In this document: one piece after another, positions 375 to 8,254 of the stretch
Layout: every line of letters begins with the position of its first letter
Numbering within the stretch: position 1 is the stretch's first letter
Source: Pseudomonadota bacterium
Lineage (GTDB): Bacteria; Bdellovibrionota_C; UBA2361; OMIW01
Direction of reading: 5' to 3'
NCBI GenBank assembly: GCA_900299205.1
Contig: OMIW01000064.1
Location: 1-11,324 of the forward strand
DNA: 11,324 nucleotides
Program-made: the position numbers and the translations under genes
Notes under the pieces: model-generated
The model's database searches: none
What the model saw: only the letters and a program-made list of their open reading frames with translations
Told to the model about the DNA's origin: nothing

Positions 375-1028
375 CTACGCGGTGAGCGCTTCCAACCGCT
401 CCTTGCAGGCCTCAAACCACCGATCGGCGGCCTGTAAAGCCCTGTTCGCTTCAAGCCCCCTGAACACTCCTCCGCCCGTCCCCGAACTCGATTGATCTAT
501 TTGCCGCAGCGCCACCTGTAGCTTCTCTACCTCTCGTTTCGCTGATTCAACGTCCCCCTTGGCGACCATTATCTGAATTTGGCGCGGGAGATCTCTCGTT
601 CCTGCAACCACCATCGCGAGTTTCAGTTGTTGCATCGACGGCTGCTCTGTATTCAGCGCATTCGTTCCGCTTTTTAACACCCCAGAGAGACCCTGGAGAA
701 CATCGGCGAGGGGGCTTCCCATAAGTTCGGTAACTGCTTTCATCTGGGGAATATGAGTAGCTAGGGCGATTAAGGGTGGTTCTGCAGACTGTGGGGAAAG
801 TCCTCCGATAGGTCTGGGGTATTCAGGCGAGGACTGAAGGGTGTTCCCTGGCCCTAGCTCTCTCTGCCATTTATCCCTATCACCCTCAGGCATCTGCAGT
901 CTGGGGCTCGAAGTGGCGTTTAGCCCTATTGGCGCACCTGTGCCCGAAGGTAGTCCCTCAACCCCTCTGCCATTTCCCTCAGCAACCCCTACCACAGCCG
1001 AATCTCCCTGCTCAAATATAAACCCCAC
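375..1028 (-). CDS. Hypothetical protein, 217 aa, Gly/Pro-rich N-terminus and helical C-terminus
   Basis: I do not recognise this protein. Residues 1-85 are rich in Gly, Pro and Ser with little predicted structure. Residues 85-125 form a mildly hydrophobic stretch (PLIALATHIPQMKAV and LADVLQGLSGVLKSG). Residues 130-178 look like amphipathic helices (VESAKREVEKLQVALRQID). A Gly-rich hinge (SSSGTGGG, 180-187) leads to a final helix ending ERLEALTA. There is no signal peptide, membrane span, Cys cluster or catalytic motif. The listed start is GTG, with a GGGGAG 12 nt upstream; a second GTG at 995 has a better-spaced GGGAG and may be the true start. The gene is divergent from the CoA-transferase. 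The sustained helical C-terminus supports real coding, but function is unknown. A scaffold or export-related role would be guesswork. Confidence 0.62.
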   Translation of the reverse strand: MGFIFEQGDSAVVGVAEGNGRGVEGLPSGTGAPIGLNATSSPRLQMPEGDRDKWQRELGPGNTLQSSPEYPRPIGGLSPQSAEPPLIALATHIPQMKAVTELMGSPLADVLQGLSGVLKSGTNALNTEQPSMQQLKLAMVVAGTRDLPRQIQIMVAKGDVESAKREVEKLQVALRQIDQSSSGTGGGVFRGLEANRALQAADRWFEACKERLEALTA

Positions 1029-1184: not shown

Positions 1185-1323
1185 GTGACTCGTCTCTTGC
1201 GCTGTGCGCCGAGATACTCCTGTCACGATTGTTTCCGCAAGAAGATTCTGCCGCCGGGATATCGGTCCAGCATCGTCTTCTCCTCAATTTCCCCGAGTGC
1301 CCGCTGTGAGCTGTCTAGACCCC

Positions 1324-1329
1324 GGAGGA
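1324..1329 (+). promoter_or_regulatory. Ribosome binding site deciding the CoA-transferase start
   Basis: GGAGGA lies 9 nt before the ATG at 1339. The same frame is open further upstream to 1204, but only this ATG has a Shine-Dalgarno sequence, and family similarity begins just after it. Confidence 0.8.
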
Positions 1330-1338
1330 ACCTTAACT

Positions 1339-2619
1339 ATGAAGCTTGTCTCTCCCTCCCGCGCCGTATCCCTCATCCCCGCCAACTCCACCATCTTCAT
1401 CCATAGCGTCGTCGCAGCTCCCTCTGTCCTCATCTCTGCCCTGATGGAGCGCGCCAGCGAATTGTGCAACATGCAGGTGGTCCAGATTCACACCGAGGGC
1501 CCCGCTCCGTATGCGGAACCGGCCTGGGGGAATACCTTTCGGACGACCTGTTTCTTTGTGGGAGCCAACCTCCGCCAGGCCGTGGCCGATGGGCGGGCTG
1601 ATTACGCACCGGTGTTTTTGAGCGAGGTGCCAGGAGTATTTCGATCTGGAACGGTGCCGGTTGATGTCGCGCTTATTCAGGTATCCCCCCCTGACCGTCA
1701 CGGCTATGTGTCACTTGGGACGTCGGTGGACATTTCACTCGCTGCGATAGAGTCTGCCCGACTGGTGATCGCACAGGTAAATCCACACATGCCGAGGACT
1801 CACGGCGATGGCATCATCCCTGTCTCTATGATTCATTACGGGGTCGAAGCCCCTGTACCGTTACACGAAGTTTCCTCTCCGGCTATTACCCCGGTTGAGT
1901 CCGCGATCGGTCGCAACGTCGCAAGTCTTGTCGAGGATGGAGCGACGCTTCAGATGGGAATAGGCTCTATCCCTGACGCCACCCTCAGCTTCCTCGCATC
2001 CCACCGCGACCTGGGGATACACACGGAGATGTTCTCGGAGGGGGTGATCGATCTCGCGGAAAAAGGGGTGATCACCGGCGCGAAGAAGAAGGTGCTTCCC
2101 CACAAGATAGTCGGGAGCTTTTTGATGGGCACCCGTCGCCTATACGATTTTGTTCACGACAATCCCAGCGTGATGATGCTCGAGAGTTCTTTTGTCAATG
2201 ACACCTCGGTCATCCGGCAAAATCCACGGGTGACGGCGATAAATAGCGCGATAGAGGTCGATATTACAGGCCAGGTCTGCGCCGATTCAATCGGCACCCG
2301 CCACTATTCGGGTATCGGTGGGCAAATGGACTTCATGCGAGGCGCAACCCTCTCAGAAGGGGGCAAAGCGATCATCGCGATGCCCTCGACAACGACGTCA
2401 GGGGTGAGCCGGATCGCGGCGACCCTAAACCAAGGGGCGGGGGTGGTGACCACCCGAGGTCATGTGCGGTACGTCGTCACCGAGTATGGTGTCGCAGAGC
2501 TTTACGCCAAACCGCTTCGCGACCGCGCACGAGCTCTCATCGCGATAGCCCACCCCGATCATCGCGAGACGCTCGAGCGGCAGGCGTTCGAGCGGTACAG
2601 GGTATTGGGCCGAAATTAG
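1339..2619 (+). CDS. Acetyl-CoA hydrolase / 4-hydroxybutyrate CoA-transferase family protein
   Basis: This 426-aa protein belongs to the acetyl-CoA hydrolase/transferase family (class I CoA-transferases such as 4-hydroxybutyrate CoA-transferase and Cat1/Cat2). These move CoA between an acyl-CoA and a free carboxylate through a glutamyl-CoA thioester. The N-terminal domain covers about residues 1-190 and the C-terminal domain 195-420. Visible motifs are QMGIGSIPDA (205-214), GIHTEMFSEGV (226-236), whose Glu230 matches the catalytic glutamate of the 4-hydroxybutyrate enzymes, and GIGGQMDF (325-332), the conserved CoA-binding loop. TEYGVAEL (381-388) and the C-terminal IAHPDHRE are also typical. 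The length is normal for the 4-hydroxybutyrate type. No signal peptide is present, so it should be cytosolic. No partner enzyme (such as an acyl-CoA dehydratase) is adjacent, so the acyl substrate cannot be set from context. Family assignment is firm and substrate is open. Confidence 0.94.
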   Translation: MKLVSPSRAVSLIPANSTIFIHSVVAAPSVLISALMERASELCNMQVVQIHTEGPAPYAEPAWGNTFRTTCFFVGANLRQAVADGRADYAPVFLSEVPGVFRSGTVPVDVALIQVSPPDRHGYVSLGTSVDISLAAIESARLVIAQVNPHMPRTHGDGIIPVSMIHYGVEAPVPLHEVSSPAITPVESAIGRNVASLVEDGATLQMGIGSIPDATLSFLASHRDLGIHTEMFSEGVIDLAEKGVITGAKKKVLPHKIVGSFLMGTRRLYDFVHDNPSVMMLESSFVNDTSVIRQNPRVTAINSAIEVDITGQVCADSIGTRHYSGIGGQMDFMRGATLSEGGKAIIAMPSTTTSGVSRIAATLNQGAGVVTTRGHVRYVVTEYGVAELYAKPLRDRARALIAIAHPDHRETLERQAFERYRVLGRN

Positions 2620-2629
2620 GGACATCACG

Positions 2630-3077
2630 ATCTCAGCGAGGTCGCGGGTTGGTCATCGCGCGACGTATCTCGATTGGGCCTGAAACGATATCGACGGCGA
2701 TCCTATTGTGCGAGATGAGCTTTTGATCGAGCGCGGTGATTTGTTGATGCAGGCCCCCTCAATCGGCTGCTTATCAATAACCGGACGCCCAACGAGGGTC
2801 CGGGTTCGGACCATAGGGAGATACGGTCATCCGGCTGGCGGCGAGAGGTTCTTTTTAACTTCACCCATTTTCAAAGAGGACTTCCGAAGCGAAGGCTCGG
2901 GGCAGATATTCCTCCTCAAAAAAGACTGGCCTGAGCTCTCCAGCTCACCGAGCCCAACGCCACTCATTGCTCGGAGATCACAGGGAGGACATTCCAACGG
3001 CGACGCTCGACACGGATACATTCTACCGGGTCGGATACTAAGTCGGTCAGGAGTACAAGCAGTTCATCATCGGTCAA
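2630..3077 (-). pseudogene. Decayed AlbA_2 (Schlafen-type) ATP-binding protein gene
   Basis: No intact frame exists here, but pieces in different minus-strand frames follow the order of one known family: proteins with an N-terminal AlbA_2 putative DNA-binding domain and a GHKL-type ATP-binding region (COG2865-like). From 3077, a TTG-started piece reads LTDDELLVLLTDLVSDPVE, the typical N-terminus. From 2932 to 2864 comes VFFEEEYLPRAFASEVLFEN, then a stop. Next are PSLGVRLLIS (2798-2769) and, in another frame, RPVIDKQPIEGA. From 2746 to 2660 comes LDQKLISHNRIAVDIVSGP followed by IEIRR. At least three frame changes are needed, and most of the AlbA_2 core and the entire ATP-binding half are gone: about 450 bp remain of an expected gene well over 1 kb. 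It follows the M23 gene by about 20 bp on the same strand. The family match is from memory of conserved wording, not a search. Small out-of-frame open frames across this stretch on either strand are not separate genes. Confidence 0.65.
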
Positions 3078-3097
3078 TCGTTGATTCTCACCCCAAC

Positions 3098-4315
3098 CTA
3101 CCCCACTCGCCGATTCCCCTTCGCCCGAGCTGCAACCTGAACCTGTGGCCGTCGCGCCGGGCTTGCTTTGTCCTTGCCGTCAAACAGGTAGTGTCTTGGA
3201 TCCACGGGTCTGCCTCGGACCTGAACCTCGAAGTGAAGGTGCGAGCCGGTTGATCGCCCGGAGGAACCACAACGACCAATGGTGGTGCCTCGACCGACCC
3301 GCATACCGACCCGTACAGGGGCGGCTGAAAGATGGGCGTATCGGGTCACGACATCCCCGCCGTGGACGATATCAACGACAAGACCATAGGTACTGTGACG
3401 ACCGACGGCGTTCACGATACCCACCGCAGATGCCTGGATCGGCGCGCCACGGGCACAATCGATATCCATTCCTTCGTGCATTCGGCGACCACCGTAGAAC
3501 GGGGAGGTGCGAACTCCGTAATGCGATGTTACCCGCCCTGCTATCGGCACCATGAGGGGCACAGTGGGCGGGGGAAGGCTTTGAGAGACGAGTGTATGCG
3601 AAGTTGCGGCTGGGGAGGTCGATCCCCGCCGCACAATCGAAATAGTTCTGATTCGCTGGGGCGTGCTGTTCGCCCCAGCGGGGCGCTTACAGCCATCCTG
3701 CGAGGGTGCACATTCGCTCTCTGCCCCGCCGACGCCTCCCCTCTCTTGGCTCTCCTTTCCCATCATCCACCACGGGCCGACATCACCAAATGAGGTCCAT
3801 TCGTCCTCGGGTTTGGCTCGTCGCGCAGGTTCAGGAGCGGCTGTCGCGGTCGTTGGATTCACCCCAAACTGCCCTCGCTTTAACAATGCCCGGGCACGGA
3901 ACGATATGCGGGCCACCTGAGCCTGAAGGTCAGAAGCAACACGCTCGAGGGATGACTTCTCCTCGGTCAGCGTCGCGATTGTCGCGGTGTGATTGAGCGA
4001 CATGGATGCGAGCCGCGCATAGTCGACAACGGCCCACAAGCCTCCAGCCAGAAGCGCGAACATCGCAAGTGAGACCGCCACCTCGACCCCACGCGAGCAC
4101 GAGACCCGACGCTGCTCACCTTTGAATGGGAGCACGACGACGATACGAGGAGATTTGCTTGTCGGGACTAATTCATCGCCGCACGCAGACAGAGCGGCCG
4201 AACCAGACGTCGTCCCTGGTTGCCCCAAAGGCATCTCGGGGTACGGGTTATCTTTTTTTACGACCCTGTTCTTCAAAGGTGGGTCGGCACGGCGTCTTCG
4301 ACGATTATCTTTCAT
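3098..4315 (-). CDS. Membrane-anchored M23 family metallopeptidase (LytM/DD-endopeptidase-like)
   Basis: This 405-aa protein probably cuts or helps regulate cutting of peptidoglycan cross-links. Residues 1-76 are a long, basic N-terminal tail (five consecutive Arg at 5-9). A single hydrophobic span follows at about 77-100, then a short coiled-coil-like segment (105-145) and a Pro/Gly-rich linker. The C-terminal peptidase domain (about 255-378) has the zinc site intact: His280 and Asp284 in HEGMDID, His328 in YAHLS, and His359-x-His361 in HLHFEV. The layout (anchor, coil, LytM domain) is that of periplasmic inner-membrane M23 proteins, so the catalytic part should face the periplasm. An Arg/Lys-rich tail (380-405) follows the domain. 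The start is uncertain because no strong Shine-Dalgarno precedes ATG 4315. The coding sequence overlaps nothing intact; the decayed AlbA_2 gene begins just downstream. Confidence 0.9.
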   Translation of the reverse strand: MKDNRRRRRADPPLKNRVVKKDNPYPEMPLGQPGTTSGSAALSACGDELVPTSKSPRIVVVLPFKGEQRRVSCSRGVEVAVSLAMFALLAGGLWAVVDYARLASMSLNHTATIATLTEEKSSLERVASDLQAQVARISFRARALLKRGQFGVNPTTATAAPEPARRAKPEDEWTSFGDVGPWWMMGKESQERGGVGGAESECAPSQDGCKRPAGANSTPQRIRTISIVRRGSTSPAATSHTLVSQSLPPPTVPLMVPIAGRVTSHYGVRTSPFYGGRRMHEGMDIDCARGAPIQASAVGIVNAVGRHSTYGLVVDIVHGGDVVTRYAHLSAAPVRVGMRVGRGTTIGRCGSSGRSTGSHLHFEVQVRGRPVDPRHYLFDGKDKASPARRPQVQVAARAKGNRRVG

Positions 4316-6276: not shown

Positions 6277-6312
6277 TTTTTGCATATCGGGTTTTTTTTG
6301 CATATCGGGTTT
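6277..6312. repeat. Perfect 18-bp tandem duplication in the recN leader
   Basis: Two exact head-to-tail copies of an 18-bp unit, TTTTTGCATATCGGGTTT on the plus strand, occupy 6277-6294 and 6295-6312, ending 14 bp before the recN start codon. On the transcribed strand each unit carries AAACCCGATATGCAAAAA. The array directly abuts the recN ribosome-binding region, so copy number changes by slippage would alter leader length. It could also be a doubled regulator site. Confidence 0.9.
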
Positions 6313-6442: not shown

Positions 6443-8158
6443 CTAGAGCGGAGCCATGTCTCCCCTTTGCCCATCGGTGGGTGCTCTACTCGAACCGTCG
6501 AGTCGCTCAAAAGCGTGCATGAGGCCCCGCAGAAGAAACCTCTCATGCTCTCGCGATAGCGGTGCTCCCCACGCGAGCAGCCATACCCGTTGCTCTTTCA
6601 CGAGAAGCTGCCACCGACGAAGCATTTCATCTGCTCTTTTGTCGGTTGGATTACCCTCACCGTCTCGCGCTGATCCGAGCGACTTAACAACCAACTCCAG
6701 AGCACCCTCGGGCTCGCGGGAGCGAGCCGCCTCGCATAAGACGACCTCGGGATAGAGCAATGCGGCGTCTCGAATAACCACCTGCAACGTCTGTTGGGCC
6801 GCCGACGATAATAAACCGTTCGCATAGTGGGAGAAAAGGGATTGCATCGCGATGGGGCACCCCTTCATCTGCTGGGTCAACGCTCCTAACATCTCCCGGT
6901 ACAGTGCAACACCCGCCTCTCCGAGGGGTAGCGCCTCCCGAGAGAGCTGTTCGAGTTCGTCCGCGCGGAGCACACTTGATGAGCTGGGTGCCTGACTTCT
7001 CCCGAGGTATCGGGCGATTCGGACGAGGGCTCGCACCGCCGATGAGGCCTCCCGATTCGAGCGTCTTTCCTCTGCAGGAACGGACTTAATAATCCCCAAA
7101 GCATCGGCAAACGCTGCATGCGCTATCGGCATCTGAACAAGGGTTGGAGGGGGCAGGAGCGCTGAATGCGTGGATTCTGAGCTGAGCCACTTTTGAACTC
7201 CGGGTATCTTCGCAAAAGCGACAACTTCGGGAGGATTTACTCCATTTCCGCCGATAGCCTGTATCATGGGCTTTACGATGGCTCCCAATTCCTCACCGGA
7301 GAGAGGATACCCGAGCGAACGCTTGAGGGTCTCGACCGCTGTCTTGCCCCTGTCACGGATGATGAGATACTCGAGATTTTTCCTGGCCTGTTCACGAAAA
7401 GGCGTGAGAGCTACCTCAAAAGCTGGCGTCTCTCGGTCGAACAATCGCTCAACCCGCTGGAGCAGCCGGATCGAGTCATGAAGCTGCAGGGCGAGAACCG
7501 CGATACCTTCTCCGCTCCCCATCCCTGAGCGGAAAGAGAGCGATTCGGCGACAAAGGTATCAAAGACTGATTCAAATAGCTCACGTTGAATATTTTTATC
7601 AACTGACCCGATTACCCGTATCATCCCGGCCCGATTATCGGGGTTTACCGATGAGGCGAATATTCGATGTATCAGGGCACCGGCGGCGGGATGGAGGTGA
7701 ACGACCGCATCAAGCGCCTCCTTGCACCCAAAAGGCTCATCCTTCCGAGAGGCTCGGCGCAACGCAACAGTGGCTACCTGCTCGAGGAATGCCGGCCGGA
7801 TAGGATTGTCGCTCGGGAGTTTAAGTAACACTGAAAGAGCTGCTTTTTCATCCGATGCTACCTCAGGACGGGCGAAAGAGCGGCCTACTTCAAAGAGGCG
7901 CAACAGACTTCGCTCCCCATCTCTCATTGGCTCGCGAGCTGAGGTCTCACGAACGAGTCGGAGACTCTCGTTAAATAGTCGGGCCGCCCCCTCCACCTCT
8001 GCTGGCGATCCAAGTGATTGCGGTATGTCACTCGCAGAAATCTCGTGCCGAGCAAGCCACGTTGATCTCAGATAAAGCTCAGCCTCACGGGATTGATCGC
8101 CGCCCCCATGATGGGCGCGCGAATCTTCGTGAGGTTGAGAGGGCGATTGTTCGCGCAT
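6443..8158 (-). CDS. Large hypothetical protein, predicted all-helical and soluble (about 571 aa)
   Basis: I do not recognise this protein. It starts with a hydrophilic, His/Gln/Ser-rich stretch (EDSRAHHGGGDQSREAE) and continues as a long series of amphipathic helices rich in Leu, Ala, Glu and Arg, of the kind seen in HEAT/ARM or TPR-like solenoids, though I cannot pick out a repeat consensus. There is no signal peptide, membrane span or obvious catalytic motif. Cysteines are few and scattered. A Ser-rich loop (SQAPSSSSVLR) breaks the helices in the second half. The frame is open upstream to 8254 with possible starts at 8191 (ATG) and 8245 (ATG). The ATG at 8158 is preferred because GGAA lies about 8 nt before it and a dyad suggestive of regulation (8183-8198) sits just upstream. 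Length and steady helical character make it a real gene. A protein-interaction scaffold role is inference only. Confidence 0.75.
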   Translation of the reverse strand: MREQSPSQPHEDSRAHHGGGDQSREAELYLRSTWLARHEISASDIPQSLGSPAEVEGAARLFNESLRLVRETSAREPMRDGERSLLRLFEVGRSFARPEVASDEKAALSVLLKLPSDNPIRPAFLEQVATVALRRASRKDEPFGCKEALDAVVHLHPAAGALIHRIFASSVNPDNRAGMIRVIGSVDKNIQRELFESVFDTFVAESLSFRSGMGSGEGIAVLALQLHDSIRLLQRVERLFDRETPAFEVALTPFREQARKNLEYLIIRDRGKTAVETLKRSLGYPLSGEELGAIVKPMIQAIGGNGVNPPEVVAFAKIPGVQKWLSSESTHSALLPPPTLVQMPIAHAAFADALGIIKSVPAEERRSNREASSAVRALVRIARYLGRSQAPSSSSVLRADELEQLSREALPLGEAGVALYREMLGALTQQMKGCPIAMQSLFSHYANGLLSSAAQQTLQVVIRDAALLYPEVVLCEAARSREPEGALELVVKSLGSARDGEGNPTDKRADEMLRRWQLLVKEQRVWLLAWGAPLSREHERFLLRGLMHAFERLDGSSRAPTDGQRGDMAPL

Positions 8159-8182
8159 AGTCGAGTTCCGAGATATCCCCCA

Positions 8183-8198
8183 CACACTCATTAGTGTG
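8183..8198. promoter_or_regulatory. Dyad just upstream of the helical hypothetical gene
   Basis: CACACT (8183-8188) and AGTGTG (8193-8198) are perfect inverted arms around CATT. It ends 25 bp before the preferred start at 8158 and overlaps an alternative ATG at 8191. It could be an operator or a small leader hairpin; no T-tail is present. Confidence 0.3.
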
Positions 8199-8254
8199 CG
8201 AAACGGACAAGGATTGGTGAGCCATCGGTGCCGAGCATAGGCCATCTGCACCAC

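What the first reader, a model, noticed from the sequence alone, without database searches (positions are those of the whole stretch)
2630..3077. Multi-frame remnant of an AlbA_2 / Schlafen-type ATP-binding protein gene
Protein pieces in different minus-strand frames (DDELLVLLTDLVSDPVE, FEEEYLPRAFASEVL, RPVIDKQPIEGA, SHNRIAVDIVSGP) appear in the order expected for the AlbA_2-plus-ATPase family, with several frameshifts, stops and a large internal loss, and the ATPase half missing. Such genes are usually accessory and linked to defence or regulation, so this marks a lost accessory gene inside otherwise ordinary chromosome. Ordinary frame calling would miss it.
Basis: partly seen in the sequence, partly recalled or inferred. 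Interest (0 to 1): 0.6.

Follow-up and report, generated by a model that had tools for sequence, protein, structure and literature searches.

The report
Dead Schlafen-type defence gene remnant
Between two ordinary chromosomal genes lie the eroded remains of about a third of a bacterial Schlafen/AlbA_2 protein gene, whose nearest living relatives sit inside BREX anti-phage islands; it is a real fossil of a lost accessory gene, but an ordinary kind of find.

Summary
A frameshift-aware alignment of the minus strand (2600-3120) to 80 intact family members scores 386; 500 dinucleotide shuffles average 143 (maximum 182), and no other tile of the window exceeds 170. Three sub-pieces are each independently significant (0 of 500 shuffles) and collinear. 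The parent is a ~402-aa protein with an N-terminal SLFN_AlbA_2 domain and a C-terminal HATPase_c_4 domain. The window keeps ~138 residues, 63% identical to the closest intact protein. Lost are residues ~20-139 (nearly the whole AlbA_2 domain), ~216-243, and everything after ~285 (all of the ATPase domain). There are two in-frame stops and several frame changes, so Pfam finds nothing in the pieces. The remnant groups with two proteins encoded between brxC and pglX in type 3 BREX loci, a linkage already published for Schlafen-kinase proteins (PMC12839542). BrxC and PglX are not found in this genome, and no relative examined keeps the gene at this site. Verdict: a genuine pseudogene of a defence-linked accessory gene; low interest.

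The parts
3030..3083 (-). Remnant piece 1: N terminus of the AlbA_2/HATPase_c_4 protein (residues 2-19), QRLTDDELLVLLTDLVSD
   Evidence: 13/18 identical to L108; piece 2985-3110 beats 500/500 shuffles
2935..3023 (-). Remnant piece 2: residues ~140-169 (ERRR..LP / DLRAMSGVGLGEL), reached after a ~120-residue deletion that removes the core of the AlbA_2 domain; one frame change at 2979
   Evidence: 15/30 identical to L108
2801..2926 (-). Remnant piece 3: residues 170-211, VFFEEEYLPRAFASEVLFENG*S*KEPLAASRMTVSP, with two in-frame stops
   Evidence: 27/42 identical to L108; piece 2800-2990 beats 500/500 shuffles
2758..2799 (-). Remnant piece 4: residues 212-215 and 244-253 (TLVG, RPVIDKQPIE), with ~28 residues missing between them
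   Evidence: 9/14 identical to L108
2663..2758 (-). Remnant piece 5: residues 254-285 (LDQKLISHNRIAVDIVSGPIEIR); the homology ends here, before the HATPase_c_4 domain (residues 312-395 in intact proteins)
   Evidence: 21/32 identical to L108; domain position
1204..2619 (+). Flank: intact acetyl-CoA hydrolase/transferase gene, convergent with the remnant, ending 43 bases short of the last detectable homology
   Evidence: PF13336 and PF02550
3098..4315 (-). Flank: intact M23 peptidase gene, same strand and directly upstream of the remnant; the recN-M23 pair is conserved in the order
   Evidence: PF01551; recN next to M23 in many relatives

Best explanation
Positions ~2663-3083 (minus strand) are a pseudogene of a ~402-aa Schlafen-type protein (SLFN_AlbA_2 domain, middle region, HATPase_c_4 domain). 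It has decayed through two internal deletions, a 3' truncation, two in-frame stops and several frame changes (shown). The parent gene was probably gained horizontally next to the conserved recN-M23 block, either with or out of a type 3 BREX defence locus, because its closest intact relatives sit between brxC and pglX (inferred). In intact members the AlbA_2/Schlafen domain is proposed to be an RNase effector, plausibly controlled by the ATP-binding domain and released on phage infection (published proposal for the RNase role, the control step is inference; neither tested here). This copy has lost nearly all of both domains, so it can make no active protein; it is most likely inert intergenic DNA.
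For: Frameshift-aware profile score 386 vs 143 +/- 12 for shuffles; three independent collinear pieces; 63% identity over 138 residues to L108; among the ORFs tested only family members hit the region; parent domains PF04326 and PF13749; 60 of 82 near-invariant family positions are lost, and of the kept ones E17 is V and R191 is a stop; tree groups the remnant with L108 (0.84), L099 (0.95) and L102 (1.0); L108 and L099 neighbours are BrxC and PglXI, with BrxF also in L099. Flanking genes are full-length, so the breaks are not from generally poor sequence.
Against: No BrxC or PglX match elsewhere in this genome (~90% complete, 206 contigs) and no BREX gene piece elsewhere in the window, so a former BREX locus at this site is not shown. 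L102, in the same clade, is not flanked by BREX genes. The tree rests on only 99 remnant residues and on 80 intact members chosen by similarity to one query.
Confidence: 0.95

Rival explanations
1. The gene arrived as the two-gene unit seen in most intact loci (AlbA_2/HATPase_c_4 gene followed by a ParA-like ATPase gene), not as part of BREX; the ParA partner was deleted together with the 3' half.
For: A ParA-like gene accompanies it in 63 of 80 intact loci, usually with overlapping stop and start, and the downstream half of the gene is missing here. G005, a genome of the same order, carries the pair (L040).
Against: No ParA remnant in the window, no close ParA of this kind in this genome, and the remnant's own clade (L108, L099, L102) has no ParA partner.
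Confidence: 0.2
2. The breaks are sequencing or assembly errors in a draft genome and the gene is really intact.
For: The genome is a draft of 206 contigs.
Against: Two internal deletions of ~120 and ~28 residues, loss of the last ~117 residues and two stops cannot be single-base errors; neighbouring genes of 405-548 aa are open.
Confidence: 0.02
3. Chance similarity of short peptides in several frames.
For: The quoted peptides are short and lie in different frames.
Against: 0 of 500 shuffles reach the score, for the whole and for each of three separate pieces; other tiles, the plus strand and the reversed profile score as shuffles do.
Confidence: 0.005

Closest known systems
AlbA_2/Schlafen-HATPase_c_4 proteins inside type 3 BREX loci (L108, Candidatus Methylumidiphilus alinenensis; L099, Desulfuromonadaceae bacterium)
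   Same: 63% identical to L108 over the surviving 138 residues; same order of segments; grouped in the tree
   Different: Those are intact genes between brxC and pglX; here the gene is broken and no BREX gene is found
[quoted passage not shown]
   Same: Same domain pair (AlbA_2/Schlafen and a histidine-kinase-type ATPase) and the same BREX linkage in the nearest relatives
   Different: That paper's sequences were not compared here, so identity of the subfamily is likely but untested; no wHTH was sought
AlbA_2/HATPase_c_4 + ParA-like two-gene unit (e.g. L045, L044, L040)
   Same: Same protein family
   Different: The remnant's clade lacks the ParA partner, and none is detectable here
The 460-aa intact AlbA_2 protein on contig C92 of the same genome (L001)
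   Same: Same Pfam domain
   Different: A different subfamily, 27-28% identical to the parent family; not the source of the remnant

Membership tests
SLFN_AlbA_2 + HATPase_c_4 protein family (402-aa type) | Collinear sequence similarity to family members beyond chance | tested here: met
SLFN_AlbA_2 + HATPase_c_4 protein family (402-aa type) | SLFN_AlbA_2 domain (residues ~17-131) | tested here: not met
   Residues ~20-139 deleted; no Pfam match in the pieces. The remnant descends from a member but no longer holds the domain
SLFN_AlbA_2 + HATPase_c_4 protein family (402-aa type) | HATPase_c_4 domain (residues ~312-395) | tested here: not met
   Homology ends at residue 285
Functional protein-coding gene | One open frame | tested here: not met
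   At least two stops and several frame changes
Type 3 BREX locus | brxC, pglX and other core genes alongside | tested here: not met
   No BrxC or PglX match in the genome or in the window; present only around the nearest intact relatives
Anti-phage activity of the intact parent family | Protection in a phage challenge | not testable with these tools
   Literature proposal only (PMC12839542)

The most novel reading that the evidence does not exclude
The intact family, paired with a ParA-like ATPase in 63 of 80 loci, highly similar across many phyla and found inside BREX type 3 and Hma-like loci as well as alone, is a mobile two-gene defence module that PADLOC 2.0.0 has no model for; this window holds a fossil of that family.
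Probability: 0.25. Interest if true: 0.45.

Novelty: new member of a known kind. Interest (0 to 1): 0.15.

Why it matters
It shows one loss event of a defence-linked accessory gene, invisible to ORF callers and to Pfam because both named domains are gone. Such fossils help to count how often defence genes are gained and lost. Beyond that it is an ordinary pseudogene.

Tried and rejected
A Pfam scan of the separate pieces gave nothing, as the Pfam domains are deleted. A plasmid search with the concatenated peptides gave nothing. Looking for the locus by DNA in relatives found no syntenic copy; no other genome of the same family is held. A search for a ParA remnant in the window scored as shuffles do. 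A search for BrxC and PglX in the genome, and of the neighbour genes of intact copies in the window, found none. A viral contig scan with the nearest protein found no relative. The short matches that the first loose alignment placed beyond residue ~285 were rejected as products of cheap gaps; they vanish with stricter costs.

Full report
What is there. A search of related genomes for PF04326 brought in L014, from a genome of the same order, whose 402-aa protein matches the region at 54% over 46 residues. That protein has SLFN_AlbA_2 at residues 17-132 and HATPase_c_4 at 312-393. A scan of public genomes gave 80 loci that encode close relatives.

Is it more than chance. A profile from those relatives was aligned to the region by a dynamic programme that allows frame changes, long deletions and stops. 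The minus strand scores 386. The plus strand scores 143, the reversed profile 127-158, 500 dinucleotide shuffles 143 +/- 12 (max 182), and 150 tiles elsewhere in the window at most 170. With stricter gap costs the score is 311.5 against 43 +/- 7.5 (max 73), and three separate pieces each beat all 500 of their own shuffles, ending at family columns 25, 211 and 285, in order. Of 615 ORFs taken from around the 80 intact loci, only family members hit the region (80 hits, 79 loci, all minus strand). A whole-genome search with the nearest intact protein re-finds the window with stops inside.

Anatomy. Against L108: residues 2-19, then a deletion to ~140, then 140-169 with a frame change at 2979, a further frame change before 2926, 170-211 with two in-frame stops, a one-base shift, 212-215, a deletion of ~28 residues, 244-285 with one more frame change at 2758, and then nothing. 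87 of 138 aligned residues are identical. Nearly the whole AlbA_2 domain and all of the ATPase domain are gone: 60 of 82 near-invariant family positions are lost, and E17 and R191 among the kept ones are V and a stop. That is why Pfam finds nothing in the pieces.

Surroundings. The remnant lies directly downstream of an M23 peptidase gene and recN, a pair conserved in many genomes of the order, and converges on an acetyl-CoA hydrolase gene. Both flanking genes are open over their full length. No family member was found in the M23 loci of the relatives examined. The genome carries one other AlbA_2 gene, intact and of a different subfamily.

What it came from. A tree places the remnant with L108 (support 0.84), L099 (0.95) and L102 (1.0), ahead of all other members; L108 is also the best match in 794 of 1000 resamplings of the 99 sites. 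In L108 and L099 the gene sits between brxC and pglX of a type 3 BREX locus; L099 also has brxF. The hosts are a Methylumidiphilus and a Desulfuromonadaceae bacterium, so the gene probably moves horizontally (inference). [quoted passage not shown] the parent family fits that description by domains. BrxC and PglX are not found in this genome, so whether BREX itself ever stood here is open.

Wider family. In 63 of 80 loci a ParA-like ATPase gene accompanies the gene, mostly with overlapping stop and start. The pair occurs within BREX type 3 (L044, L081), beside Hma-like genes (L103) and alone, in many phyla. PADLOC 2.0.0 gave only weak matches for either protein. The remnant's clade lacks this partner, and no ParA trace is in the window.

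How it works. The intact protein is most likely a Schlafen-type RNase effector with a histidine-kinase-like ATPase that could act as its switch (first part from PMC12839542 and the domains; the switch is inference). The remnant cannot work: both domains are gone. The alternatives of assembly error and chance are weak, as set out under the rivals.

Verdict. A genuine, well-supported pseudogene of a defence-linked accessory gene.

Noticed in passing
L040:4546-7614 (same locus as L014, genome G005 of the same order): A collapsed type 3 BREX locus: a 148-aa ORF joins the start of BrxF to the last 90 residues of BrxC, then the AlbA_2/ATPase and ParA-like genes are intact, then only the last ~105 residues of PglXI remain. 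The BREX core was lost while the pair survived.
   Followed up: partly
L040-L119 (e.g. L045:5001-7219): AlbA_2/HATPase_c_4 gene plus ParA-like ATPase gene as a conserved overlapping pair in 63 of 80 loci across many phyla, without a PADLOC model.
   Followed up: partly
window 6443-8254 (-) and 375-1028 (-): Two long ORFs (603 and 217 aa) without any Pfam match over cut-off.
   Followed up: no
window 6277-6312: Perfect two-copy tandem repeat of an 18-base unit (TTTTTGCATATCGGGTTT) just upstream of recN.
   Followed up: no
L001:499-1881 (contig C92 of the same genome): An intact 460-aa AlbA_2 protein of another subfamily in the same genome.
   Followed up: partly
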